From NCBI GenBank assembly GCA_028386065.3, contig JAKUCV010001034.1, positions 92,381-156,380 on the forward strand: a stretch of DNA of 64,000 bases, written 5' to 3'. Under the pieces are notes generated by a model. That model had not been told where the DNA came from. It was given only the letters and a program-made list of their open reading frames with translations, and ran no database searches. The stretch is from Turnera subulata (Eukaryota > Streptophyta > Magnoliopsida > Malpighiales > Passifloraceae). Below are positions 10,363-61,300 of the stretch, one piece after another; positions within the stretch are counted from its first letter, which is position 1, and each line of letters begins with the position of its first letter. A program made the position numbers and the translations under genes.

Positions 10363-11186
10363 CTCTGAAAAAAAACACCAAATCCCTAAATTGAACCCAC
10401 TAATCACTGTGATTACAACTAACACGAACTTATGCGGGAAGATATAGCCTCATTACAATTATTTTAGGCCATTCCTAGTACAAATGTGTCATTTAACACT
10501 AGTAGAGAGAGTTAATAAAGGAAACCAACCAATGGTGAATTAGGGTGTAGATTCGAGGAAATGAGAGATAATCTGAGTCAAAATTTGGATCGAAGGCAGG
10601 GAACGAGAAAGCAAGGTTAGAGAAAGTAACGGTTGTGGAGGCTAGTGGACAGGGCACGACTTTCTCTAACCTCTCCAGTTGCAGTGGTGGTGGTGGTTGT
10701 CTAGGATTTTGCTGGATCTTGAAGAGGTGCGAGAATAAGTGAGGAGAGGGTTTTGGTGGTGTTTAATAGAAGGATTTAAGGCGAAAAATTTGTGTGACGA
10801 ACGGTGGTTTCGTACTACTACTGATGTACTACTGCTAGGAGTAATTTGATGGGTTCAATAAATTTTACCCCTGAACTTTCGGTTAAACTTCACTTATCCT
10901 GGAAAAAAAACAAGTACTTAACCAAATGGATTGTATGAGTGTGAGGGAGCAAAGCTAACTAAGACGGTGTTGAGACTCCTCGATCAAGATGTTTTTTATG
11001 TCATCAAATATGGTCTGACCATTCGTTCAAGTAAAGTTATCTCCACAAAAACTTAAGTCACATAAATCGTAGTCTGGAAAGGCAACTCGAAATCCATCCA
11101 CACTGCCCATTTGTCCTCGTTTGGCGAGAGCAAATATGTACGGATGGTCTAGAGAAAAGTCTAAATAAACAGTCTAGTTAGAGAAT
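10363..11186. other. Upstream flank of the G3BP-like remnant, no gene seen
   Basis: This would be the 5' UTR and promoter side of the G3BP-like remnant (start at 10362). A purine-rich tract lies at 10560-10790. The stretch at 10850-10930 (ACCCCTGAACTTTCGG and similar) looks like a transposon fragment. I see no reading frame worth calling. Confidence 0.4.
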
Positions 11187-11395
11187 TATTGTGAATAATA
11201 TGTTAAAATGAAGAATTTTATGGAGAAGAAGAAGTGAAGAGAAGGATGATGGGAGAAGAAGGAAAGATGGAGCCAAGAGCAAAGCTCGGTTCTTTTATTT
11301 TATTCACACACTCTCATCTGCATATTGGTACATAATTTATATTAATGTGGTAGGTGGACACAGTGACGTCCATTTACCACGTTTGTTTTATAACA
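11187..11395 (-). repeat. E1 3' LTR
   Basis: This is a 209-bp copy of 17164-17372. The outer end is TATTGTGAA, preceded by the AGAAT duplication; the inner end is TTTATAACA next to the polypurine tract. If AGAAT is the duplication, the LTR termini are TG...TA rather than TG...CA. Confidence 0.9.
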
Positions 11396-11890
11396 CTCCC
11401 CCTTGGACGTCAATGTGTATTGAGTAGAATACGCTTTGGGGAAACTGCCTCATTAAAAACCTTACCAAGAAAAATCCTGTGGGATAAAAACTTGGTGAAG
11501 GAAAAAGGAGTGCAGTGCGTATTCTACTCCCCCTCATTTTAGCCTCCGTTGATTTCTTTGATGTCGTTGTATGCCAATCGTCCTTGTCAGCTTCTGGTGA
11601 TGTGTGTGTTGTCTGATCACTTTTGATACATCGTTACTCCAACTGGACAATGTGGGTAGCTTTATTTTTGTTGTTGGAGCATCTTTCTTGTTCTCTTGCT
11701 TTTTGTAGTCCTAATGATGCAACAATTTCATGTGTAAAGTTGTGGCAGATGTCCGGCTGTGCCTTTTGTGGATCAAGTGGGGAATCGGCATCTGCAAGAA
11801 CCAACTCTTCTTTCTTCGGGCTTACAGGATTAACATGACACCACATCTTTTATACCCCGAAGATAAGAGTAAATTCATATCTTGCCAATA

Positions 11891-14037
11891 GGCTTAAGCC
11901 AAAAGCTTCAGGCTTTATTTTCTTAGCAATACATATTGCACTTCGACAGGGTACTCCAGGACCAGTCAAATAGCACGGTATTTGGAAGCTTCTTCGGGAG
12001 TTCCAATCACAAAACACATCCATACTCAAAATTATTGAAACCATATAAAGATCAATTTAGTTCAACTTTGTAATTTCCCGGGAATCAGTTGCTTCAGGCA
12101 ACTTAGATCCTTCAGGGATCATATATATATATCATAATCAAATAGATCCATACTAATAGGCTGTAATAGCATTCATTAGATGCCTTTCTAATTCTTTTCA
12201 TATAATGCCAGACTTATCAAAATAATTGCATCCACCACAGGGGAGTTTATCTCCTCACAATTAATTCCAGATCGTTCGGGTAAAAAACCTTGTGCAACCG
12301 TGCTTTCGCACAGGTACCCATTTTACGATCGATCAATTTTACACCCATCTGGTGTACGGACTACCGGTCCGAAAATTTTCTCGCTTCACAAGCGATTCCA
12401 ACACAGCCTTTAATCATATCTCTTTATTTTGGCCAATCATACAGCACCTACATTCATTAGTAGGTTCATGATCCTCTGTTTTAATATTTAGCGCTATAAA
12501 AATTCTATTCCGTCGACGGTTATTTCTCGTCGGTTCCATCTTATTTCTGACACTGTAATTGAGATCTCATCATATTCACTTATTTCAGGTACCTGAGTTA
12601 CTTCTGGAACTTTATCACTTTGTGTCAGAGAATCAACCTCTTCTGGGGAACTTTTAATTCAAACCTCTACTGGAGGCCATATTTTCTTACTGGGGCCATC
12701 TTATCACATTTGCTCCTTTTTCTCTATTGAGAATTTCTTTTTCTTTTTGGAACCGAGTATAAATTATAGATTCATTTGCATACTTATATTGTTCTTCAGG
12801 AACATCAATTTAAACAGGAGCATTTGCAGCTGGTATATGGTCACACTTAATTTAAATGTGTCTGGCAATTATATATCAATTTTTCTGCAAATGAATCATC
12901 TTTTGAACTTCCGGTTCACATGAATTCGTTTGAGGATCAAAACCAAGCATTGAATAATATTTCAATTATATCTTGATCCAGCTGCTTATTTTCTCCCCCT
13001 GATGTTGGGTATACACACATATCGAATTAACAATAAGCAAATCTTGCTATAAGTGAATCTTCAATCTTCTAGTCAATAGTTTCAATAACGTTGTAATTGA
13101 TGGAGAATACCCAACATCTATTCTCAAACTTCTTTAAGGACCAGCTTTACTATGCTGTGGTGGAGCATCTTATACTATATAACTAATGGTCCGAAGATAG
13201 GTGTTACTAGTGACCATGAACCAATTAAATGGGGAGACCTTTTGTTTGGCTTGATGCACATAAGTGTTGCTGCATGTAAAATACCATTTTCTCAAATGGT
13301 CATATTTCATCAATGGTCCTGCAATCAATTGTCAATGTTCCCCCAAAACTGTTTGGGTTTATTTCTAATGATATACATTATCCATTGAAGAAATATATCA
13401 GCATTTTCTAGACATATAGTCTAAAAACATAAGTAAGGACATATACCGCAAGTGGCTTAGTTATTAAATCAGTGCGCACAATGCCAACTTGCGTCACATA
13501 ATAGACCATCTAGTTGATGCATCGAGAAAATTACCTAGATGGTCAACACAGCGGATTTATCATTCCGCGTTCATATCCCAAATGTGCTGGTCTAGGCCAA
13601 TCCCATCTTTTGATGGTCGTATTATTAATTTCGCAGCAAACAAACACATGGAAATTCATTGATTGTAAAACTTCTGGTTTTTCAATGAATGACCAAATAA
13701 ATTTAGTGCATCATTATTGACCCGGGATGGCCCAACCGGTCATGCCAAATAAATCAAATAAACCAACTTTAAGTTGGTACCAGCTTCAGGCTGGTATATA
13801 TGTGCCAGCTTCAGGCTGCTATTTTTACTAACTTTTGATGGGTACCAGCATCAGGCTATTGTGTACCAATTTTAAGCTTATATCTGCCACTCATGTCGAA
13901 AGGATCAGAATCATTGAACAATAATTAATGTAGTGGCAGACATTTCCAAAAGCAAATCCTCAAGGATTGTAAAGCTTTGGAATTTTCTGAAAAATAATAC
14001 AATCCACCGAAAAAATCTTCTAGAACTTTTCGGGGAC
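11891..14037. repeat. E1 hairpin array, left block
   Basis: Short perfect hairpins with different arms but a 5-nt loop closed by C:G are packed here. Examples are AAAGC-TTCAG-GCTTT (11902), AGTTGC-TTCAG-GCAACT (12087), GATCC-TTCAG-GGATC (12106), TACACC-CATCT-GGTGTA (12340), CGGAC-TACCG-GTCCG (12357), CCTC-TACTG-GAGG (12664), TGTTC-TTCAG-GAACA (12790), TGAAC-TTCCG-GTTCA (12904), TAGAC-ATATA-GTCTA (13409), AAAAC-TTCTG-GTTTT (13667), ACCAAC-TTTAA-GTTGGT (13762) and TACCAGC-TTCAG-GCTGGTA (13778). Others have different loops, for example ACCATTT-TCTC-AAATGGT (13283), CCCAAA-ACTG-TTTGGG (13342) and a 10-bp stem GACCATCTAG/CTAGATGGTC (13503/13535). No coding frame is present. Confidence 0.85.
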
Positions 14038-14059
14038 ACCTGGCTGTCAATGCTCAGGC

Positions 14060-14067
14060 TATAAAAA
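14060..14067 (+). promoter_or_regulatory. TATA box of the E1 antisense ORF
   Basis: TATAAAAA followed by a G run lies 92 bp before the ORF start at 14159. The sequence between is an A-rich, CAA-containing leader without ATGs. The arrangement matches the one in front of the related ORF in E2 (TATA at 57264, ATG at 57380). Confidence 0.6.
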
Positions 14068-14158
14068 GGGGGGGAGATTGCTTAGGAAGATACAGCAAAA
14101 TTCAAAGATACAGAAAATTTAACAAAGCAAAGAAACAGAAAACTCAACCAAGACAAAA

Positions 14159-14809
14159 ATGCCTTCCCCAGCTACTGTTTTCTTTGTTGAGGGTGCCTCA
14201 TTAGGAAGAAGGAATAGGTTAGCTTATAGCATGGTGAATGAGCAGCAAGAAGAATTACCAAATGATCTGGCGAGAATTCCTCGTTTAGTGTTTGTTGATG
14301 AACTTTATTCATCTAGGTTCTTTGTAACTCCTATGGAAGAAACATTCTTCCTAGAGGACCAAAGCAATCTAAGGGCTTCCTTTTATGGCTCGGCTAACTC
14401 TATTATGTTTTTCATATCTAATAGATTGCAGGAATTTCAGCTGGAGCCTTCATGTCAGATTTTAAATCAAAGCAGTTATTATCAGGTTTCTATGATGGCT
14501 CGGAGCGTCCAAAGGGTGACTGGTTTACCACCTACATGGCCTAAGGTACGATTTCTACTATGGAATTCCAGGGGTGTAGCAAGAAGGTCCCAAGATTTTG
14601 TGCGTACCTTAAGGGATCTGAAGAATCAGTACAAGCCTAACATGGTACTGATTATTGAGACTTTGTGGCAAGTAGGAGAAAATTATGGTGTAATTCCACT
14701 CCGTTTTCCTCCAACAAATCGATTTGAGCTGCCTGGAAATAACAACATGGGTGGTATGTGGTTCTCCTGGAACGACAGTGTTAGGGTCAACATCAATAAC
14801 GAGGCCTAG
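14159..14809 (+). CDS. Antisense ORF of E1: unknown N-terminal region plus partial L1-type endonuclease start
   Basis: A 216-codon open frame lies antisense to E1. Its homologue in E2 (57380-58063) has the same 684-nt length if the terminal TAG here (14807-14809) is passed; the shared tail runs to a TAA at 14840-14842. Residues 1-115 (FFVEGASLGRRNRLAYSMVN ... PRLVFVDELYSSRFF) match no family I know. Residues about 128-210 resemble the first part of the plant L1 endonuclease: LLWNSRGVARRSQDF carries the WN, ET at 167-168 carries the catalytic Glu, and GGMWFSW corresponds to the GGIWLLW segment. The SDH end of the enzyme is absent, so nuclease activity is unlikely. The two copies are about 70% identical in protein, with many synonymous changes. 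The function is unknown. Confidence 0.7.
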   Translation: MPSPATVFFVEGASLGRRNRLAYSMVNEQQEELPNDLARIPRLVFVDELYSSRFFVTPMEETFFLEDQSNLRASFYGSANSIMFFISNRLQEFQLEPSCQILNQSSYYQVSMMARSVQRVTGLPPTWPKVRFLLWNSRGVARRSQDFVRTLRDLKNQYKPNMVLIIETLWQVGENYGVIPLRFPPTNRFELPGNNNMGGMWFSWNDSVRVNINNEA

Positions 14810-14842
14810 AGCTTTAGGGCCAATGTTGTACCCAACCGTTAA

Positions 14843-16240
14843 ATAATTTCATTCAGCTTTATGTATGAGAACAATTCCTCTATGTGGATGTTCTCAAGTA
14901 ATGATCCCTTCTGTAATAATAATATGTATGTTTTCTTTTAGCCTTGCCTTTTGTCATAATCTTCACAGTCATAATAGTTGGAATAATTTCTTCCATATCC
15001 TTGGCAACTGGCACTATACTGTCTCATTCACTTCAAGGAATGGAGCAGAATCAATTTAATGGGATCCATAACAATTTGTTTAATTGCTATAAACAAGAAA
15101 ATTTTATACTCTTCAGGAGTTTATGCTCTTCAGGAGTGTATGCATATGATCTTCTAGATCATAGTTACATTTGTATTTTTATGTATGCAACAGTATTCAC
15201 ATACAGTGTTCCTCTTCCCCTTGAATGTTGTTGCATTTTTGGGTAGGTGGAATATTTCTCTTCAGGAGCACATTAAGACCCATGCTCTTCTGGAGCGGGT
15301 TAATAAATTTTCATAGAAGTAATTTCCGTGTATTAAGTACGGAATATATCATCGCATTGTCTACAGGACAAATGTCTGGGTCATTATTCGAGGAAACGAG
15401 AATTTAATGTGCATATAACAAGAAATAAACAGTAATAAGAATAAACATAAAGTAATACGAATAAACATAATGTAAATATAACAGAAATAATAAGGCTGAA
15501 AAATTAAACATTAAAATTAAAGCAATTAACTTGCACCTCCAGAGTGAGCAAGAATAATATCATAATTTTGTGGTCATTATTTCGACCAGACATGGTTTCA
15601 TTGATATTACATTTTGTCCTGCAGGGACGCACATTTCTTCAGATAAGACTTCCGGTCTTTGCTGCATTTTTTTTCTTTTATTGAGTCTTCATGACTCTGT
15701 CATTTAGCCTTCCAGACTATTATGCATTTCAGTATTTAATGCCCATATCAAATTTCGTCAGGAAATTTTGAGGGCCCAAAATCAAATAACATAATTAAAA
15801 GGCTTAAATAAATAAACAGGGGCCTTTTTGTTAAGTACCCCCAATATAAATGACAGAAAATTAAAATTGATGAGCCTTGTATGAACCCAAGCAAAAACAT
15901 AAAGAAAATCAAGAAAGTAAATATATTGGGCCTTTTCATAGCCCAATTTGTAATAAAAAAAAGGCGGCTTAGCCGGCCAACAAATGAAACAAGGCGGCTT
16001 AGCCGGCCAACAAATAGATAAGGCGGCTTAGCCGGCCAATATTGAATACTATAATAGAGGGTATGCTTACTCGATAAATCTTTCAGCAATAATATATATA
16101 ATATATCATATTAATACATGGGCCTTTTAAAAAAATTAGCCCAATAAAAAATAAATAATTGCAAATTAAAGGCGATGGGCCTTACATGAGCCCATTTAAA
16201 ATGTAAAGAAAAGCAGTAAAATGAATACAATAGCCTTCCG
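14843..16240. repeat. E1 hairpin array, right block
   Basis: The same hairpin type continues beyond the antisense ORF: ACTC-TTCAG-GAGT (15108), TATGATC-TTCTA-GATCATA (15145), GCTC-TTCTG-GAGC (15284), TTGTC-TACAG-GACAA (15357), GTCC-TGCAG-GGAC (15616), AAGAC-TTCCG-GTCTT (15645), GAGTC-TTCAT-GACTC (15683), AATTTC-GTCAG-GAAATT (15751) and AGCC-TTCCG-GGCT (16232). No gene is visible in this stretch. Confidence 0.8.
15962..16043. repeat. Three-copy GGCGGCTTAGCCGGCC tandem repeat
   Basis: Three copies of AAGGCGGCTTAGCCGGCCAA lie at a spacing of about 27-32 bp. Each unit holds the small palindrome GGC-TTA-GCC, in keeping with the hairpin-rich character of E1. Confidence 0.85.
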
Positions 16241-16412
16241 GGCTTGCCAGGAAAATTCCGAGGCGCTGAATTTCGGCCAAACACAAAATAAGTATAATAG
16301 CCTTCCGGGCTTGGCGGGAAAATCCTGAGACGCTAAATTCCGGCCAAACACAAAATAAGTATAATAACCTTCCGGGCTTGCCGGGAAAATCCCGAGATAC
16401 CAAATTTCGGCA
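16218..16412. repeat. Three-copy repeat of about 68 bp with paired arms
   Basis: Three diverged copies begin ATAGCCTTCCGGGCTTG and run to TTTCGGCCAAACACAAAATA. Within them, AGCC-TTCCG-GGCT and CGGGA-AAA-TCCCG form short hairpins. The arms differ slightly between copies. Confidence 0.85.
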
Positions 16413-16415
16413 ATA

Positions 16416-16600
16416 TAATTTTTTTTTCTCTCTTTTTCTTTTTCTTTCTCTCCAATTTTTTTTCTCTTTTTCTTTTTCTTTCTCTCCTTTTCTTTTCTTT
16501 TTTTTTTCTTTTCTCTTGTTTCCCCCTTTTTTTTCTGTTTGTTTTTTTTTTGAAGGGTCGGGCCGTGAACAGTACCGGCCCAGTCTTTTTTTTTTTTTAC
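16416..16600. repeat. Polypyrimidine tract in E1
   Basis: Runs of T and C (TTTCTTTTTCTTTCTCTCC and similar) give long spurious frames on both strands. Immediately after it, GGGCCGTGAACAGT at 16560 is also found after a T run in the E2 LTR at 54680. Confidence 0.8.
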
Positions 16601-17163
16601 AGTGGGCCGAATAGTCACAGCCCAAGCCCATAACTATTCCCGGCCCAGGACAAAAAAAAAACACAAGCCCAAGCGAACCTGGCCCGCGACCCGTCGGGTC
16701 AGCCTGACCCATCCGGGTCGTCTTCTCCACCTCGCGGGTCGCTCGCTGTGACGAGTTGCAAGTGGCGGCGGTGACGACGAACGGCGAGGCGCGAGGGAGG
16801 AAGGAGGGGTGGCGACCCGTCTGGTGCTCGCAGTGACGCCTGTCGGTGGCTGCAGGTGCGGCAGCGGGGAGAACAAGGGAGGAGGACCCGACGGATTAAG
16901 TCGGGTCGTCGACTTGACAGTCGGGTCTTCTGCTCCTGGCGGCGAAAAACGACCGGAGAAGACGGCGTCGAGGTCGCGACGGTATGGGCGACCTGGTGGT
17001 GGTGGTGGTGTTTGAAGAAGCGGCCCGGAACTCTAAACGATGAACAGTAACGGCATGGGTGGCTTACTGTTCATCTTCTTCGTTTTTCTGCGTTTTTTTT
17101 TCTGCTCCAGTATTTTTTTCTGTCTGAAAACATGGACTGGTAGAGGCTATCGTGCTGATAACG

Positions 17164-17372
17164 TATTGTGAATAATATGTTAAAATGAAGAATTTTATGG
17201 AGAAGAAGAAGTGAAGAGAAGGATGATGGGAGAAGAAGGAAAGATGGAGCCAAGAGCAAAGCTCGGTTCTTTTATTTTATTCACACACTCTCATCTGCAT
17301 ATTGGTACATAATTTATATTAATGTGGTAGGTGGATACAGTGACGTCCATTTACTATGTTTGTTTTATAACA
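17164..17372 (-). repeat. E1 5' LTR
   Basis: This is a 209-bp copy of 11187-11395 with three differences, all in the last 50 bp of the plus-strand sequence. The outer end, at 17362-17372, is reused in the target-site duplication of the SINE that follows. Confidence 0.9.
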
Positions 17373-17379
17373 AGAATCT

Positions 17380-17705
17380 ACCACCGGGGGTGGTGGCCCA
17401 GTGGCAAGGCCTTCAACCTGCCATCTCTAAGACTCGGGTTCGAGTCCCGGCGCTTCCAGTCAAGTCCCATAGTGTGATGCGGCCGAATATGGCCTTCCAC
17501 ACGGTGGGGTGCTGGCCGTTGAGCCCGGTGATTCCCCGATATTATGACGCGTAGCAGGTGAGGGTGTCCGCTGGTGCCCCGGTTGGGCGGTCTCTCCTAT
17601 GAGGAGGGTCTAATGCCAGGATGTAACCGGTATTGACCGGGGCCTGGACCGACGGGGCGATGATGACACCACTGATGTCTTTTTTTTCTCGACAAAAAAA
17701 AAAAA
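17380..17705 (+). mobile_element. tRNA-derived SINE, 326 bp, 18-bp target-site duplication
   Basis: The head has tRNA-like promoter boxes (A: TGGCCCAGTGGCAAGG; B: GGTTCGAGTCC), and the end is CTCGAC followed by an A tail. It is flanked by GTTTTATAACAAGAATCT at 17362-17379 and 17706-17723. That duplication contains the last 11 bp of the E1 LTR and the E1 target-site copy, so the SINE inserted after E1. I cannot assign a named family. Confidence 0.92.
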
Positions 17706-52957: not shown

Positions 52958-55900
52958 TGAAACGCCCCGACCCGTATTTACCGTACACAGTAAACACGTG
53001 CCGGAACTATGACGACCCAACCATACCAAGCCCAGCATACAGTGTATACGACAGATATCCGGGCTCAACAGCCCATAATAAAATAACAACAATAATAACT
53101 CAACCGGCCCAATGGCCCAATAATAGCAAAAATAATGCACAGCGGAAGACTTAACAACTCGCAAAACACTGTATGCGACACTGATGCAAACTATGGATCC
53201 GAGCCCTGTCCAAGGGATAACGTCGCAGCCTGTCTGGAATGCACCAATCCTGTACCAAAAGTAACTCATCCTACGGGATGAAAGCCCGCAGGTGAGGGGT
53301 GAGTCCGAAGTGCTCACCGACGAAGGAAAGACAATCAATATGCAACTATAATTACTCAAGTCAAAAATAGGCACAACAGCCAAACCAAAAGACTCAAATA
53401 AAAACCAATTTTCCAATTTTATCTTTCTGGGCCCTGTCACGGATAACTAGAGGTCAGACCTGGTTATCAACATATTCCGGGTGCCCGACCAAATCCAGAG
53501 AACCCAGGGATCGACATCCCAAAAATACGAACTCAGGGATAGACATCCCAAAAATAATCACGGGATAGACATCCCAAGCATAGACATGCTTATCACAAGA
53601 ACCCAGGTCAAGGCCACCACGAAACAGTCTTAAACCATCGAGTCGTACCACTACTTACCACCTGACAATTATATTACCGTCATTAAAATCAAATCGCAGG
53701 GATCGACATCCCTAACCAAAATACCGGGATAGACATCCCTACCCAAAATCCAAGGATCGACATCCTTATCACATTTTATTATTTATCCATTATTCTTATG
53801 GCCAAAGACACGAAAACAAATATCCAAAACTCAACACGGGGATAAACATCCCAAAACTACCAAATCAACATACTGGGATAAACATCCCGACAACAATCAT
53901 AACAAATGCAATCATCAACAGTGCAATAAACATCAAGCACAATAACCGAGTAATACAGGCACATATTGAAGGAAATCCATCCTCACCTTGGCCGATTACT
54001 CAACTCCGGAAACAATGACCGGTCCGACGCCGGCTCCTCGGGAAACTGCCCGATATCCAAACCTATACATCAAAACAATATATACACATAAATGCACATA
54101 ATCGGTATGCTATGATGCCAAAACTGCGAAATACCCTATCCCGGTTCATATCTCTTTTATTAACAACTTTTACAGAAAATATTATACCATACGTATATCC
54201 GAATATAATTCTGGTACCATACTTTAATTAAAACTCTCTCCAAAATATTTTCATAAAATAATATACTTTTCTAAAATAATAATTACCATAATTTTTCTGG
54301 AATTTATAATATATGTATATATTTTCCACAATATTTCCATAAAAATTATTATACTTTCAAAAATATAATTTCCAAGTATTATTATCTTTAGAAAACTCCA
54401 TTTCCAGAAAATATAACCATATAACTTATTTTCTAATAATAAATACGAATTTATTAATATACATATATATATTTCCCAAGTTATTCTCGTATGCATAATT
54501 ATTAATTATTTTCCATTTCTTATACTTTCCCAAAATTCCATAATAATCATATATATATATATATATTTCCCAAAATACTTCCATGATTTAATTTTCTAAG
54601 TATTAATCATAAATATATATATATATCAGATTTTATTTATTATTATTATTTTATTTATGTTTTTTTTTTAACTTGAACTGGGCCGTGAACAGTGCTGTCC
54701 AGCCCACTACATAGAGCCCAGGCAGGCCCACGCAGCGAGCCCAACATACAGCAGCCCAGCAGCCCAACCAAGCCCAAAGCGTCAAGCCCATCATGCCAAG
54801 ACCCAAGCCAAAGCCATACCATAAACCCCAAGCCCAACCATGAGCCCAAGTCCATAACAAACCCAAACTAAAACCCAACAAAACCCAAGCCCACATACAC
54901 TTCATGCCAGCCCATGCATGCTTGCTGCACTTGCAGCCCAAGTGCACGTGTGCAGTGCAATAAAACCAATCGTCTTCAACCTCATGCAACTGCTCACCTT
55001 GGTGCATGAGCATGGCGGCGAGACGGCGGCGACATGGTCGGAGGCGCGACGCAGGAAGAGCAAGGGCGGCAGCACGGAACAGAGGCACGGTGGCAGGGAG
55101 GGTCGGCTGCAGGCGTGAGGCGGCAGGGTCACTTCGTCAGGCTTCCTCGACTAGTCGGCATAAGCAACGAGGTGAGAAGCGGTGGCTGCAACACGAGCGG
55201 TGGCTGCTGTTCCTTCACGGTGGCGTTGAGGAGATGATGGTGGCGGTTGTCGTGGCAGCAAGGAAGGAGAAGGAAGAGCGGCGAGCTCGGGGAAGCAAGG
55301 TGGCGACGTGAGGGAAAGAGGGAGAGGAAAATGGTGGCGTGATGGGGGTGGCTAGGTGAAGATGATGGTGGTGGTCTACGCGTGTGAAGAGGGAGGGGAA
55401 ATAGTGGCGGTCGGCCGGTGAAGGTGAGGCAGCAGCAGGTGGTTGGTGTCTTGTTTGTTGTGTGGGTGAGGGTGGTTTACGGGTCTTGAGGAAAAAAAAA
55501 GAAGAGGAAGGAGAGGAAAAAGAATAAAAGGAGAAACAAGGAAGAAGAAGATAGGGAGAGTCACGGGTGAGAAGGCAGGAAGGGAAGGTGGAGCAGCAGC
55601 GGTCGGTCACGGGCGGAAGGAGGAAGACGACGGGAAAGAGGAGAAAAGAGAGAAAAAGAAAAAGAAGAAAAGAAAAGAAGAAAAGGGGAGAAGACAGGGG
55701 CATAACCATAATTTTCTGTCCCGAGTCCAAAAATATGACTTGGGCTCGGAAAATCCGATTAATTCTCCTGAGCATCGTCCAAGTCTCGAAACTGAAAACC
55801 GAGGCTCGGTTAGTTAGAAAGATTCTCTCGAGCACAGGAAAACTCTCGGTTTTGAAAAACGATGCCCGATTTACCTTGAATTAATTACCCAAGATTAATT

Positions 55901-56158: not shown

Positions 56159-56536
56159 ATGGACTTCCCACTCCGATCTCGAACAACCTCAGACTCCGAG
56201 AACAACAGCTACATCGGTGGCACTGCCTTCCCGACAAGCTCCGATGAAGAACCTCCCAAGAAGCGGTTCAAGACAAACATCATCAGCTTGGAAGAGCACA
56301 TGGTCGTCTCCAGCAGACGGCGAAAGAAACGTGCTCCCAAGAAAGCTGAGGATAAGAAGGGCAAGGCGATAGCTGAGAGCAGCACTCCGCAGCAGACACT
56401 GACGCAGCTGAACGTCTCACTGAAGAAGATCAGCTCGGCGGTGTTGCAGATCGAACTGGCGTGCGCGGAGCTCTTCCCTCACATGAAAAACGTACAAAAG
56501 CTTGTAAAAGATCTTGAGAAGCAAGTAGCTCCATAG
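56159..56536 (+). CDS. First antisense ORF of E2: basic, coiled-coil-like protein of 125 residues
   Basis: An intact 125-codon frame antisense to the element. Residues about 40-75 contain two basic clusters (PPKKRFK; SRRRKKRAPKKAEDKKGK), like nuclear localisation signals. Residues about 80-124 form a heptad-like helix (LTQLNVSLKKISSAVL ... KNVQKLVKDLEKQV). The N terminus is Ser/Thr-rich. I recognise no family, and no related frame was found in E1. It might be a nucleic-acid-binding or partner protein for the second antisense ORF; inference only. Confidence 0.5.
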   Translation: MDFPLRSRTTSDSENNSYIGGTAFPTSSDEEPPKKRFKTNIISLEEHMVVSSRRRKKRAPKKAEDKKGKAIAESSTPQQTLTQLNVSLKKISSAVLQIELACAELFPHMKNVQKLVKDLEKQVAP

Positions 56537-57379: not shown

Positions 57380-58063
57380 ATGCCTGCTCCATCATCAGTT
57401 TTCTTCGTCGAAGGTGCCAATCTAGGCAGAAGGAACCAACTGGCCTACAGCATGGTCAACGAGCGTCCAGAAGAGCTATCGAACGAGCTCGGTAGGATGC
57501 CACGTCTGGTCTTTGTCGAAGAACTCTACTCATCGCGGTTCTTCATCACTCCCATGGAAGAGACGTTCTTCCTGGAGGACCATGGCACTCTGAGGACCTC
57601 TTACTACGGATCGACCAACTCCATCATGTTTTTCATCTCCGAAAGACTTCAGGAGTTCAACCTGGAGTCCACTTGCCATACCCTGGAGCAAGGTACCTAC
57701 TACCAGCTCTCGATGACGGCCCAAAGCATGCCCAGAGTCACTCGTCTGCCCGTAACTTGGCCAAAGGCCCGACTATTGGTGTGGAACTGTAGAGGAGTCG
57801 CAAGGCGTTCCCAGGAGTTCTCACGTACCCTGAGGGACCTGAAGAACCAATACAAACCAAACATGGTTCTTCTCACATAGACCCAGTGGCAACCTCAAGA
57901 CGATCACGGTCTCATCCCACTCCGGTTCCCTCAAGCAAACCGGTTCGAGCTTCCAGGCCAGGACAACAGGGGCGGCATGTGGTTCTCGTGGAGCGACAGC
58001 ATCCAAGTCAACATCAACAACGACCCCACTAGCTTCAGGGTCAATGTCGTTCCAAGGCGATAA
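57380..58063 (+). pseudogene. Second antisense ORF of E2: homologue of the E1 ORF, one amber stop
   Basis: A 684-nt frame (227 codons) with a single in-frame TAG at 57878-57880. The N-terminal region (FFVEGANLGRRNQLAYSMVN ... PRLVFVEELYSSRFF) matches the E1 protein. The C-terminal part (RLLVWNCRGVARRSQEF ... GGMWFSWSDS) resembles the beginning of the plant L1 endonuclease. The amber replaces the codon that is GAG (Glu167) in E1, the position of the catalytic Glu in L1 endonucleases. Read past it, the frame continues to the same tail as in E1 (NVVPRR, stop). Over 26 codons compared by eye (from PRLVF onward), about 12 differ synonymously and 2 change the residue, which indicates selection on the protein in the past. 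Confidence 0.7.
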
Positions 58064-58335
58064 ATGTATTTTTATTTTTTATAAAATATCAATGTAATAT
58101 TTCTCTTTGTAATGAAATTATTAGTATTATTAATAATATTTATATTTCTGCTTATTTATGGCATCATTTACCTCTTATGTGAATGTTCTGCGACAGCTGG
58201 CGTCCCTTGACTGGATCCATAATGCACTAACTAAAATGATATAAATAATAAACAAATGGAGCGAACTATGCAAACAAGGACAACAAACACACAAAGACTG
58301 CCCTACAAGACCTAACGCCCGCTCCGCTACCAAAA

Positions 58336-61300
58336 TGAAACGCCCCGACCAGTATTTACCGTACACAGTAAACACGTGCCGGAACTATGATGATCCAACC
58401 ATACCAAGCCCAGCATACAGTGTATACGACAGATATCCGGGCTCAACAGCCCATAATAAAATAACAACAATAATAACTCAACCGGCCCAATGGCCCAATA
58501 ATAGCAAAAATAATGCACAGCGGAAGACTTAAAAACTCACAAAACACTGTATGCGACACTGATGCAAACTATGGATCCGAGCCCTGTCCAAGGGATAACG
58601 CCACAGCCTGTCTGGAATGCACCAATCCTGTACCAAAAGTAACTCATCCTACGGGATGAAAGCCCGCAGGTGAGGGGTGAGTCCGAAGTGCTCACCGACG
58701 AAGGAAAGACAATCAATATGCAACTATAATTACTCAAGTCAAAAATAGGCACAACAGCCAAACCAAAAGACTCAAATAAAAACCAATTTTCCAATTTTAT
58801 CTTTCCGGGCCCTGTCACGGATAACTAGAGGTCAGACCTGGTTATCAACATATTCCGGGTGCCAGACCAAATCCAGAGAACCCAGGGATCGACATCCCAA
58901 AAATACGAACCCAGGGATAGACATCCTAAAAATAATCACGGGATAGACATCCCAAGCATAGACATGCTTATCACAAGAACCCAGGTCAAGGCCACCACGA
59001 AACAGTCTTAAACTATCGAGTCGTACCACTACTTACCACGTGACAATTATATTACCGTCATTAAAATCAAATCAAAAGGATCGACATCCCTAACCAAAAT
59101 ACCGGGATAGACATCCCTACCCAAAATCCAAGGATCGACATCCTTATCACATTTTATTATTTATCCATTATTCTTATGGCCAAAGACACGAAAACAAATA
59201 TCCAAAACTCAACACGGGGATAAACATCCCAAAAATACCAAATCAACATACTGGGATAAACATCCCGACAACAATCACAACAAATGCAATCATCAACAGT
59301 GCAATAAACATCAAGTACAATAACCGAGTAATACAGACACATATTGAAGGAAATCCATCCTCACCTTGGCCGATTACTCAACTCCGGAAACAATGACCGG
59401 TCCGACGCCGGCTCCTCGGGAAACTGCCCGATATCCAAACCTATACATCAAAACAATATATACACATAAATGCACATAATCGGTATGCTATGATGCCAAA
59501 ACTGCGAAATACCCCATCCCGGTTCATATCTCTTTTATTAACAACTTTTACAGAAAATATTATACCATACGTATATCCAAATATAATTCTGGTACCATAC
59601 TTTAATTAAAACTCTCTCCAAAATATTTTCATAAAATAATATACTTTTCCAAAATAATAATTACCATATTTTTTCTGGAATTTATAATATATGTATATAT
59701 TTTCCACAATATTTCCATAAAAATTATTATACTTTCCAAAATATAATTTCCAAGTATTATTATCTTTAGAAAACTCCATTTACAGAAAATATAACCATAT
59801 AACTTATTTTCTAATAATAAATACGAATTTATTAATATACATATATATATTTCCCAAGTTATTCTCGTATGCATAATTATTAATTATTTTCCATTTCTTA
59901 TACTTTCCCAAAATTCCATAATAATCATATATATATATTTCCCAAAATACTTCCATGATTTAATTTTCTAAGTATTAATCATAAATATATATATATCAAA
60001 TTTTATTTATTATTATTATTATTATTATTTTATTTATGTTTTTTTTAACTTGAACTGGGCCGTGAACACTGCTGTCCAGCCCACTACATAGAGCCCAGGC
60101 AGGCCCACGCAGCGAGCCCAACATACAACAGCCCAGCAGCCCAACCAAGCCCAAAGCGTCAAGCCCATCATGCCAAGACCCAAACCAAAGCCATACCATA
60201 AACCCCAAGCCCAACCATGAGCCCAAGTCCATAACAAACCCAAACTAAAACCCAACAAAACCCAAGCCCACATACACTTCATGTCAGCCCATGCATGCAT
60301 GCTGCACTTGCAGCCCAAGTGCATGTGTGCAGTGCAATAAAACCAATCGTCTTCAACCTCATGCAACTGCTCACCTTGGTGCATGAGCATGGCGGCGAGA
60401 CGGCGGCGACATGGTCGGAGGCGCGACGCAGGAAGAGTAAGGGCGGCAGCACGGAACAGAGGCACGGTGGCAGGAAGGGTCGGCTGCAGGCGTGAGGCGG
60501 CAGGGTCACTTCATCGGGCTTCCTCGACTAGTCGGCGTAAGCAACGAAGTGAGAAGCGGCGGCTGCAACACGTGCGGTGGCTGCTGTTCCTTCACGGTGG
60601 CGTTGAGGAGATGATGGTGGCGGTTGTCGTGGCAGCAAGGAAGGGGAAGGAAGAGCGGCGAGCTCGGGGAAGCAAGGTGGCGACGTGAGGGAAAGAGGGA
60701 GAGGAAAATGGTGGCGTGATGGGGGTGGCTAGGTGAAGATGATGGTGGTGGTCTACGCGTGTGAAGAGGGAGGGGAAATAGTGGCGGTCGGCCGGTGAAG
60801 GTGAGGCAGAAGCAGGTGGTTGGTGTCATGTTTGTTGTGTGGGTGAGGGTGGTTTACGGGTCTTGAGGAAAAAAAAAAGAAGAGGAAGGAGAGGAAAAAG
60901 AATAAAAGGAGAAACAAGGAAGAAGAAGATAGGGAGAGTCACGAGTGAGAAGGCAGGAAGGGAAGGTGGGGCAGCAGCGGTCGGTCACGGGCGGAAGGAG
61001 GAAGACGACGGGAAAGAGGAGAAAAGAGAGAAAAAGAAAAAGAAGAAAAGAAAAGAAGAAAAGGGGAGAAGACAGGGACATAACCGTAATTTTCCGTCCC
61101 GAGTCCAAAAATATGACTTGGGCTCGGAAAATCCGATTAATTCTCCTGAGCATCGTCCAAGTCTCGAAACTGAAAACCGAGGCTCGGTTAGTTAGAAAGA
61201 TTCTCCCGAGCACGGGAAAACTCTCGGTTTTGAAAAACGACGCCCGATTTACCTTGAATTAATTACCCAAGATTAATTCAACAGTAAATCACGGTAAAAA

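What the first reader, a model, noticed from the sequence alone, without database searches (positions are those of the whole stretch)
11891..16240. Array of short hairpins with constant C-TTCNG-G core and covarying arms in a non-autonomous LTR element (E1)
At least 22 perfect hairpins with arms of 4-7 bp and a 5-nt loop closed by a C:G pair are spread over the non-coding interior of E1, on both sides of the antisense ORF and not inside it. The loop is TTCAG, TTCCG, TTCTG or close to it in more than half, while the arms are different every time and always pair (for example AGTTGC/GCAACT, TGAAC/GTTCA, AAAAC/GTTTT, GAGTC/GACTC). By chance a 5-bp arm with a fixed spacing occurs about once per 1024 positions, so this density with a shared loop is far above expectation. 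Constant loop plus variable paired arms looks like selection for RNA (or single-strand DNA) structure. The C(UUCNG)G form is close to the very stable cUUCGg tetraloop; on the element's sense strand the loop reads CNGAA. Roles could include packaging, dimerisation or shielding of the RNA from silencing. I do not know of a description of such an array.
Basis: partly seen in the sequence, partly recalled or inferred. Interest (0 to 1): 0.88.

Follow-up and report, generated by a model that had tools for sequence, protein, structure and literature searches.

The report
Same-loop hairpin array in plant retrotransposon
A many-copy plant jumping-gene family without recognisable copying genes carries up to about twenty tiny hairpins that share one loop but have different stems, and these likely serve as repeated docking sites for a protein that captures the element's RNA.

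Summary
The array is real and is a family trait. In E1's interior, hairpins with a 5-nt loop closed by C:G and arms of at least 4 bp number 31, against 4.0 +/- 2.0 in 1000 dinucleotide shuffles (none reached 31). One pattern of 256 stands out: C-TNCNG-G has arms in 18 of 29 occurrences, all others in 45 of 1445. In E1 and 31 relatives 421 of 805 cores on the + strand have arms, against 4 of 96 on the other. At seven sites the first three stem pairs change about three times more slowly than control columns.

The family loop is T-T-C-N-R, not a true UNCG loop. Between copies, changed arms mostly wobble or break, and compensated changes are few and all double transitions.

E1 has LTRs, a target-site duplication and a conserved antisense ORF, but no recognisable gag or pol. 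Most likely mechanism (inferred): repeated docking sites for a loop-reading protein that captures the RNA, probably a helper's Gag. Strand, protein and helper are unproven.

The parts
11187..11395 (-). 3' LTR of E1 (element sense = minus strand)
   Evidence: 98.6% identical to 17164-17372; TSD AGAAT at 11182-11186 and 17373-17377
17164..17372 (-). 5' LTR of E1
   Evidence: TATA-like and AATAAA-like stretches read on the minus strand
11396..11406 (-). polypurine tract CCAAGGGGGAG next to the 3' LTR
   Evidence: read from sequence; sets the sense strand
11396..11545 (.). conserved, strongly folded 3' domain
   Evidence: fold z -3.76 (+) and -3.68 (-); 40 scored genome matches, 39 of them (all but E1 itself) at 93-95% identity, 1815 first-look candidates; alignment of E1 with 19 of 20 matching relatives
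11902..13818 (+). left block of the hairpin array (10 C-TNCNG-G hairpins)
11902..11916 (+). hairpin AAAGC-ttcag-GCTTT
12087..12103 (+). hairpin AGTTGC-ttcag-GCAACT
   Evidence: 97.4% of cells paired in 13 aligned copies
12106..12120 (+). hairpin GATCC-ttcag-GGATC; G-C to A-T double change in 3 of 13 aligned copies
12357..12371 (+). hairpin CGGAC-taccg-GTCCG
12664..12676 (+). hairpin CCTC-tactg-GAGG
12790..12804 (+). hairpin TGTTC-ttcag-GAACA
12904..12918 (+). hairpin TGAAC-ttccg-GTTCA, a hairpin in 10 of 10 copies of that alignment
13667..13681 (+). hairpin AAAAC-ttctg-GTTTT
13778..13796 (+). hairpin TACCAGC-ttcag-GCTGGTA
13806..13818 (+). hairpin CAGC-ttcag-GCTG
14159..14809 (+). antisense ORF, 216 aa, no significant Pfam or NCBIfam family; purifying selection
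   Evidence: 7804 first-look candidates in the genome, the 150 scored are 91% identical or more
14761..14773 (+). GTTC-tcctg-GAAC inside the ORF, possibly a coding coincidence
   Evidence: not tested further
15108..16311 (+). right block of the hairpin array (7 C-TNCNG-G hairpins)
15108..15120 (+). hairpin ACTC-ttcag-GAGT
15284..15296 (+). hairpin GCTC-ttctg-GAGC
15357..15371 (+). hairpin TTGTC-tacag-GACAA
15616..15628 (+). hairpin GTCC-tgcag-GGAC
15645..15659 (+). hairpin AAGAC-ttccg-GTCTT
16232..16244 (+). hairpin AGCC-ttccg-GGCT in the first 67-bp tandem unit
16299..16311 (+). hairpin AGCC-ttccg-GGCT in the second 67-bp tandem unit

Best explanation
E1 is an intact non-autonomous plant LTR element whose non-coding interior carries 17 short hairpins outside its ORF (an 18th lies inside it) with one shared loop, C(TNCNG)G in E1 and C(TTCNR)G across the relatives read, and these likely act as repeated docking sites for a loop-reading protein that captures the element's RNA, most probably the Gag of a helper element. 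Shown: the array, its single orientation, its presence in relatives, the slow change of the first three stem pairs at the seven sites tested, and the absence of recognisable gag or pol in E1. Inferred: that the single-stranded RNA form is what counts, that a protein reads the loop and the C:G closing pair while the stem only holds the loop up (so arms may differ), and that many weak sites together give avidity, as proposed for dispersed packaging signals of RNA viruses (recalled). An element with no Gag of its own would gain directly from such sites. Not known: which strand, which protein, which helper.
For: Enrichment concentrated in one loop length and one closing pair, with one pattern of 256 standing out: 18 of 29 against 45 of 1445. 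One orientation: 421 of 805 cores with arms on +, 4 of 96 on -, over E1 and 31 relatives; the five stretches left out give 6 of 30 on + and 0 of 17 on -. Sites read as double-stranded DNA would not need one orientation. 31 of 32 copies exceed all 2000 arm permutations (copies are homologous, so not independent). 27 different arms occur among the paired cores; outer flanks of 15 E1 hairpins are no more alike than background (0.283 and 0.271 vs 0.269), so duplication alone does not explain the shared core. Stem pairs 1-3 change 0.43 times per column (18 in 42) against 1.25 (2107 in 1688) in controls; place 4 does not differ (21 in 14). Against equally well kept 13-mers stem places differ 0.045 vs 0.110, resampling p 0.001 with 8 hairpin words, although 19% of the 1143 overlapping control words are as low. 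Hairpins are rarer in the ORF of the 31 relatives: 20 of 403 against 9.1% of length. Predicted pair probability in a 207-nt context is 0.65 (+) and 0.53 (-) against 0.24 and 0.23 for 139 control hairpins, which are not C-closed on + and so are often less stable. No gag or pol domain in any of E1's 22 open frames of 70 aa or more (list; searches).
Against: No helper element and no binding protein was found. Between copies, compensated changes are few (5 pair types in 7 cells, all double transitions, beside 2 double changes that do not pair) next to 46 one-sided types. Wobble types show no strand preference: +GU 13, -GU 16, and 15 vs 18, so the genomic-RNA strand is not singled out. The purine at loop position 5, which could pair with the T at position 1 as U-G or U-A, hints at the antisense strand rather than the genomic RNA. 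Individual hairpins are weak (about -3.2 kcal/mol), six of 18 have a predicted pair probability under 0.5 on + and nine on -, and local folding of the non-coding parts is only mildly better than shuffled (mean z -0.9 on +, -0.7 to -0.8 on -, vs -0.12 and -0.19 in controls).
Confidence: 0.35

Rival explanations
1. The hairpins work in the antisense (+) RNA that carries the ORF: a protein, possibly the ORF product, binds C(UUCNR)G loops to stabilise, export or control that transcript.
For: The + strand encodes a protein under purifying selection: differences by codon position 35/17/104 of 166 against E2's copy. Loop position 5 is a purine in 482 of 531 hairpins, and five arm types carry C-TTCNA-G hairpins in 10-22 copies each, as expected if U1 pairs with G or A on +. 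Energies summed over 25-nt windows around 29 cores favour + (-159.8 vs -117.0).
Against: Perfect stems have equal energy on both strands (-58.1 each). No wobble bias. A TATAAAA lies about 99 bases upstream of the E1 ORF, which would leave the left block outside the mRNA; but a TATA-like word was found there in only 5 of 31 relatives, so the transcript's start is unknown. No transcript data.
Confidence: 0.25
2. The hairpins form a general structural shield of a long non-coding RNA (against small-RNA silencing, nucleases or ribosomes), with no specific reader.
For: Spread over most of the non-coding part; more predicted structure than controls; 3-nt-loop hairpins are also about twofold up in E1.
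Against: A shield needs no particular loop, yet one loop length with one closing pair makes up the only excess of z 4 or more, and one loop pattern most of it.
Confidence: 0.15
3. The hairpins act as single-stranded DNA during reverse transcription (first-strand cDNA has the + sequence), for example as pause, transfer or protein-binding sites.
For: One orientation fits any single strand; absence of a wobble bias fits DNA as well as RNA.
Against: No ssDNA-binding partner is known to me; DNA folding was not computed.
Confidence: 0.12
4. By-product: local duplications of CTTCAGG-containing units plus template-switch correction of near-palindromes, without function.
For: Some neighbours are tandem copies (13777-13883, 15105-15143, 16218-16418); C(TTCNG) holds a CNG methylation site, and decay of such sites can mimic double transitions.
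Against: Flanks share no similarity; palindromes with other closings are near background; stem positions are slow in relatives.
Confidence: 0.1

Closest known systems
Dispersed packaging signals of single-stranded RNA viruses (recalled; a search for the term with three others found no paper)
   Same: Many short stem-loops with a common loop motif and free stem sequence, spread along the RNA
   Different: There the coat protein is known; here no protein, no binding data and an LTR element instead of a virus
LARD-type non-autonomous LTR elements of plants (recalled)
   Same: LTRs, PPT, TSD, mostly non-coding interior with conserved parts, no gag or pol
   Different: Short 209-bp LTRs, an antisense ORF, and a hairpin array that I found described in none of the searches
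Retand lineage with antisense ORFs (PMC11963269; abstract and passages seen)
   Same: Antisense ORF, tandem repeats, non-autonomous members
   Different: 97% of Retand clusters encode a TRP28 domain; E1's ORF has no Pfam match at E 0.1 and E1 has no RT to place it. The paper's main text holds the words hairpin and secondary structure zero times
UNCG / Z-turn hairpin loops, including pentaloops with one bulged base (PMC5311481, PMC5633025; passages seen)
   Same: C:G closing, U first, C third; G last in most E1 loops
   Different: A base lies between C and G, and the last position is A in 171 of 531 family hairpins
Retrozymes (PMC4918200; search listing and start of abstract only)
   Same: Non-autonomous plant retrotransposons with a functional RNA motif
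   Different: Those carry hammerhead ribozymes; no Rfam family reached its gathering score in 11000-17500

Membership tests
Non-autonomous LTR retrotransposon (LARD-like) | Two LTRs with target-site duplication | tested here: met
   98.6% identical LTRs, AGAAT on both sides
Non-autonomous LTR retrotransposon (LARD-like) | No gag or pol coding capacity | tested here: met
   No gag or pol family in any of 22 open frames of 70 aa or more (frames; Pfam)
Non-autonomous LTR retrotransposon (LARD-like) | Mobilised by a named autonomous partner | not tested
   Search with the 5' leader did not complete
Retand | TRP28 domain (PF04195) in the antisense ORF | tested here: not met
   0 Pfam families for the ORF at E 0.1
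Retand | Retand-type reverse transcriptase | not testable with these tools
   E1 has no recognisable RT
UNCG-type (Z-turn) loop | C:G closing with U first and C third | tested here: met
   T 441 and C 424 of 531 C:G-closed hairpins
UNCG-type (Z-turn) loop | Invariant last G directly after C | tested here: not met
   One extra base; last place G 311, A 171, T 37, C 12 of 531
Dispersed packaging signals | Common loop, free stems, several sites per RNA | tested here: met
Dispersed packaging signals | Binding by the capsid or Gag protein | not testable with these tools
   no helper identified
Dispersed packaging signals | Sites lie on the packaged (genomic) strand | tested here: inconclusive
   wobble types +13 / -16; loop ends lean to the antisense strand

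The most novel reading that the evidence does not exclude
A very large family of plant retroelements without gag or pol carries a repeated loop code, a dozen to twenty C(UUCNR)G hairpins with free stems, that lets it be seized by another element's proteins; a second, unrelated element with the same antisense gene (E2) has its own array with another loop (NRAC closed by T:A), so loop arrays would be a general tool by which such elements address their partners.
Probability: 0.27. Interest if true: 0.82.

Novelty: new variant of a known kind. Interest (0 to 1): 0.62.

Why it matters
How plant elements without gag or pol are chosen for packaging is, as far as I know, an open question. A loop that recurs a dozen to twenty times per element, on one strand, in many relatives, gives a concrete, testable signal: alter the loops and keep the stems, or the reverse, and measure RNA capture. 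It would also be a clear case of selection on RNA structure in a non-coding part of a plant transposon.

Tried and rejected
UNCG loop: E1 alone suggested C(UNCNG)G as a UNCG fold with one extra base; the family table (A at the last place in 171 of 531) made me drop it as the family rule.

Own promoter for the antisense ORF: E1 has TATAAAA upstream of the ATG, but 26 of 31 relatives show no TATAAA or TATATA within 130 bases; not used as support.

Strand by wobble pairs: 5 to 0 for + in E1 alone became 5 to 1 with slightly other limits, 15 to 18 and 13 to 16 with relatives; no preference.

Helper element: 10 frames of the LTR-matched loci and their flanks, chosen from the list, and 10 chosen from the list gave no gag or pol domain, save a zf-RVT domain in L023, outside the part that matches E1. 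Protein homologues of the antisense ORF: none in the protein collection, viral contigs (30, 54), prokaryote genomes (53) or PDB (55). Short motifs in viral and prokaryote collections: none. Rfam: nothing above its gathering score. One search counted pairs with a helix set two columns off by my mistake; one search is the corrected one. One search was a wrong frame, redone.

Rows dropped: a copy was left out at a site if its core could not be placed within one column, and then if it differed from CTNCNGG at more than 2 of the 5 fixed places (200 cores kept); one search used 16 sites with 1-30 copies each, only where most of a 157-nt stretch matched; one search used the 7 sites that are hairpins in at least 30% of copies, from two of three alignments; the matched control rests on 8 hairpin words. 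L016, L018, L019, L022 and L024 were not used in the 32-copy counts (second halves or partial matches; their counts are). L040, cut short, was left out of the 3'-domain alignment (19 of 20 matching relatives). Choosing sites that are intact in E1 favours conserved sites.
Full report
What was checked. E1 is an LTR element at 11187-17372: LTRs 11187-11395 and 17164-17372 are 98.6% identical and flanked by AGAAT on both sides. The sense strand is minus: a polypurine tract adjoins the left LTR, and the minus-strand LTR holds TATA-like and AATAAA-like words (read). No gag or pol family was found in any of the 22 open frames of 70 aa or more in its interior (list; searches). An ORF of 216 aa lies antisense at 14159-14809.

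The array. Perfect hairpins with a 5-nt loop, C:G closing and arms of at least 4 bp number 31 in the 5768-nt interior, against 4.0 +/- 2.0 in 1000 dinucleotide shuffles. Among loops of 3-7 nt with arms of at least 5, no other combination of length and closing base reaches z 4 in E1; 3-nt loops as a whole are about twofold up (17 vs 7.85). Scanning all 256 patterns of a closing pair with three fixed loop places, C-TNCNG-G has arms in 18 of 29 occurrences; all others together in 45 of 1445. Arms pair far better with their own partner than with re-dealt ones (77 pairs against a mean of 29.5 and a maximum of 50 in 20000). CTTCNGG occurs 21 times on + and once on - in E1; the 20 occurrences outside E1, both strands, have no such arms.

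Family evidence. The window lies in an unnamed 518.7-Mb assembly. Sixteen stretches found by the LTR and twenty found by the antisense ORF were read. In E1 and 31 relatives, 421 of 805 + cores have at least three further pairs, against 4 of 96 on -. The relatives have 2-19 such hairpins each, median 14; some stretches hold only part of an element. Each of 31 of the 32 copies beats all 2000 permutations, the exception being L023, of which little matches E1. Five stretches left out of that count give 6 of 30 on + and 0 of 17 on -. LTR pairs of six relatives are 91.7-98.0% identical. The ORF has 7804 first-look candidates in the genome; the 150 scored are at least 91% identical. First-look candidates are not confirmed copies.

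Selection. On parsimony over trees of three alignments (22, 28 and 28 rows; 7 sites, in two of them), stem places 1-3 changed 18 times in 42 columns, controls 2107 times in 1688 columns; place 4 is like controls (21 in 14). Against 13-mers equally well kept, stem places differ 0.045 vs 0.110. So a stem of the closing pair plus three seems constrained. The first loop place hardly changes (1 change in 7 columns); the fifth and the closing G change most (15 and 10 in 7 columns).

Against. Between copies, changed arm cells are mostly wobbles or mismatches (39 + 52 + 40 of 1315). The five compensated pair types are all double transitions, which always keep pairing and could arise by decay of methylated sites; two further double changes do not pair. 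One site shows G-C to A-T in 3 of 13 aligned copies, with 6 of 500 shuffles reaching the covariation score, but sliding the partners by three columns also gives one pair with such a change. Covariation is thus strong only between different hairpins of an element.

Loop. Over 531 hairpins of the 32 copies with C:G closing and at least four further pairs, the loop is T441, T419, C424, free, G311/A171. Five arm types carry TTCNA loops in 10-22 copies each, so the A is not just private decay. U1 with R5 could pair on the + strand. This leans to the + strand, but stem wobbles show no bias and perfect stems are equally stable on both strands.

Antisense ORF. E2, a second LTR element in the window (direct repeats within about 52958-55791 and 58336-61169), holds a related ORF at 57380-58065, 72% identical in protein over 215 residues, with a stop after 166 codons (seen). 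Differences by codon place are 35/17/104 of 166, so the protein has been under purifying selection. It has no significant Pfam, NCBIfam or PDB match. Hairpins are rarer in it: 20 of 403 against 9.1% of length.

Mechanism. A constant loop on free stems, in one orientation, repeated along a non-coding RNA, is what one expects if a protein reads the loop and the stem only presents it. For an element without gag or pol, the protein whose binding pays most is a helper's Gag. This step is inferred. The antisense-RNA rival stands at 0.25 because of the loop ends and the conserved ORF.

Literature. Ten paper searches were made. Those aimed at hairpins in LTR elements listed no paper whose title or abstract start describes such an array (the last listed none at all); most subscription journals are not held, so absence here is weak. 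PMC11963269 (abstract, passages) describes antisense ORFs and tandem repeats in Retand; the word hairpin does not occur in its main text. PMC5311481, PMC5633025 and PMC11381356 were seen as passages only.

Noticed in passing
53507-53888, and mostly the same in the other LTR of E2 at about 58885-59266: A second hairpin array with another constant loop: nine hairpins of the form (arm)AT-NRAC-AT(arm), arms GGG/CCC, AAGC/GCTT, AGGG/CCCT, AAGG/CCTT, all in one orientation, in the roughly 3-kb LTR of an element that shares with E1 only the antisense ORF; a few arms are broken in the other LTR.
   Followed up: partly
57380-58065: Antisense ORF of E2 homologous to that of E1 although nothing else of E1 matches E2 by blastn: the gene seems to have moved between element types.
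   Followed up: partly
14540-14806: The end of the antisense ORF looks by eye like the start of a LINE endonuclease domain (recalled resemblance); tblastn against the LINE region of the window gives only E 0.16 and Pfam nothing.
   Followed up: partly
56159-56533: A second antisense ORF of 125 aa in E2, upstream of the homologous one, without a significant family.
   Followed up: no
11396-11545: 150-nt folded domain next to the polypurine tract with a 13-bp outer stem in E1, 93-95% identical in the scored genome matches while the longer interior matches are mostly 75-90%: possibly a cis-acting signal in its own right.
   Followed up: partly
16218-16418 and 15957-16039: Tandem repeats of 67 and 30 bp; the first holds a C-TTCCG-G hairpin in two of three units, the second a GGC-TTA-GCC palindrome.
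   Followed up: no
17387-17458: tRNA-like sequence with a low-scoring Rfam tRNA match (23 vs 29 bits) just beyond E1, perhaps a SINE.
   Followed up: no
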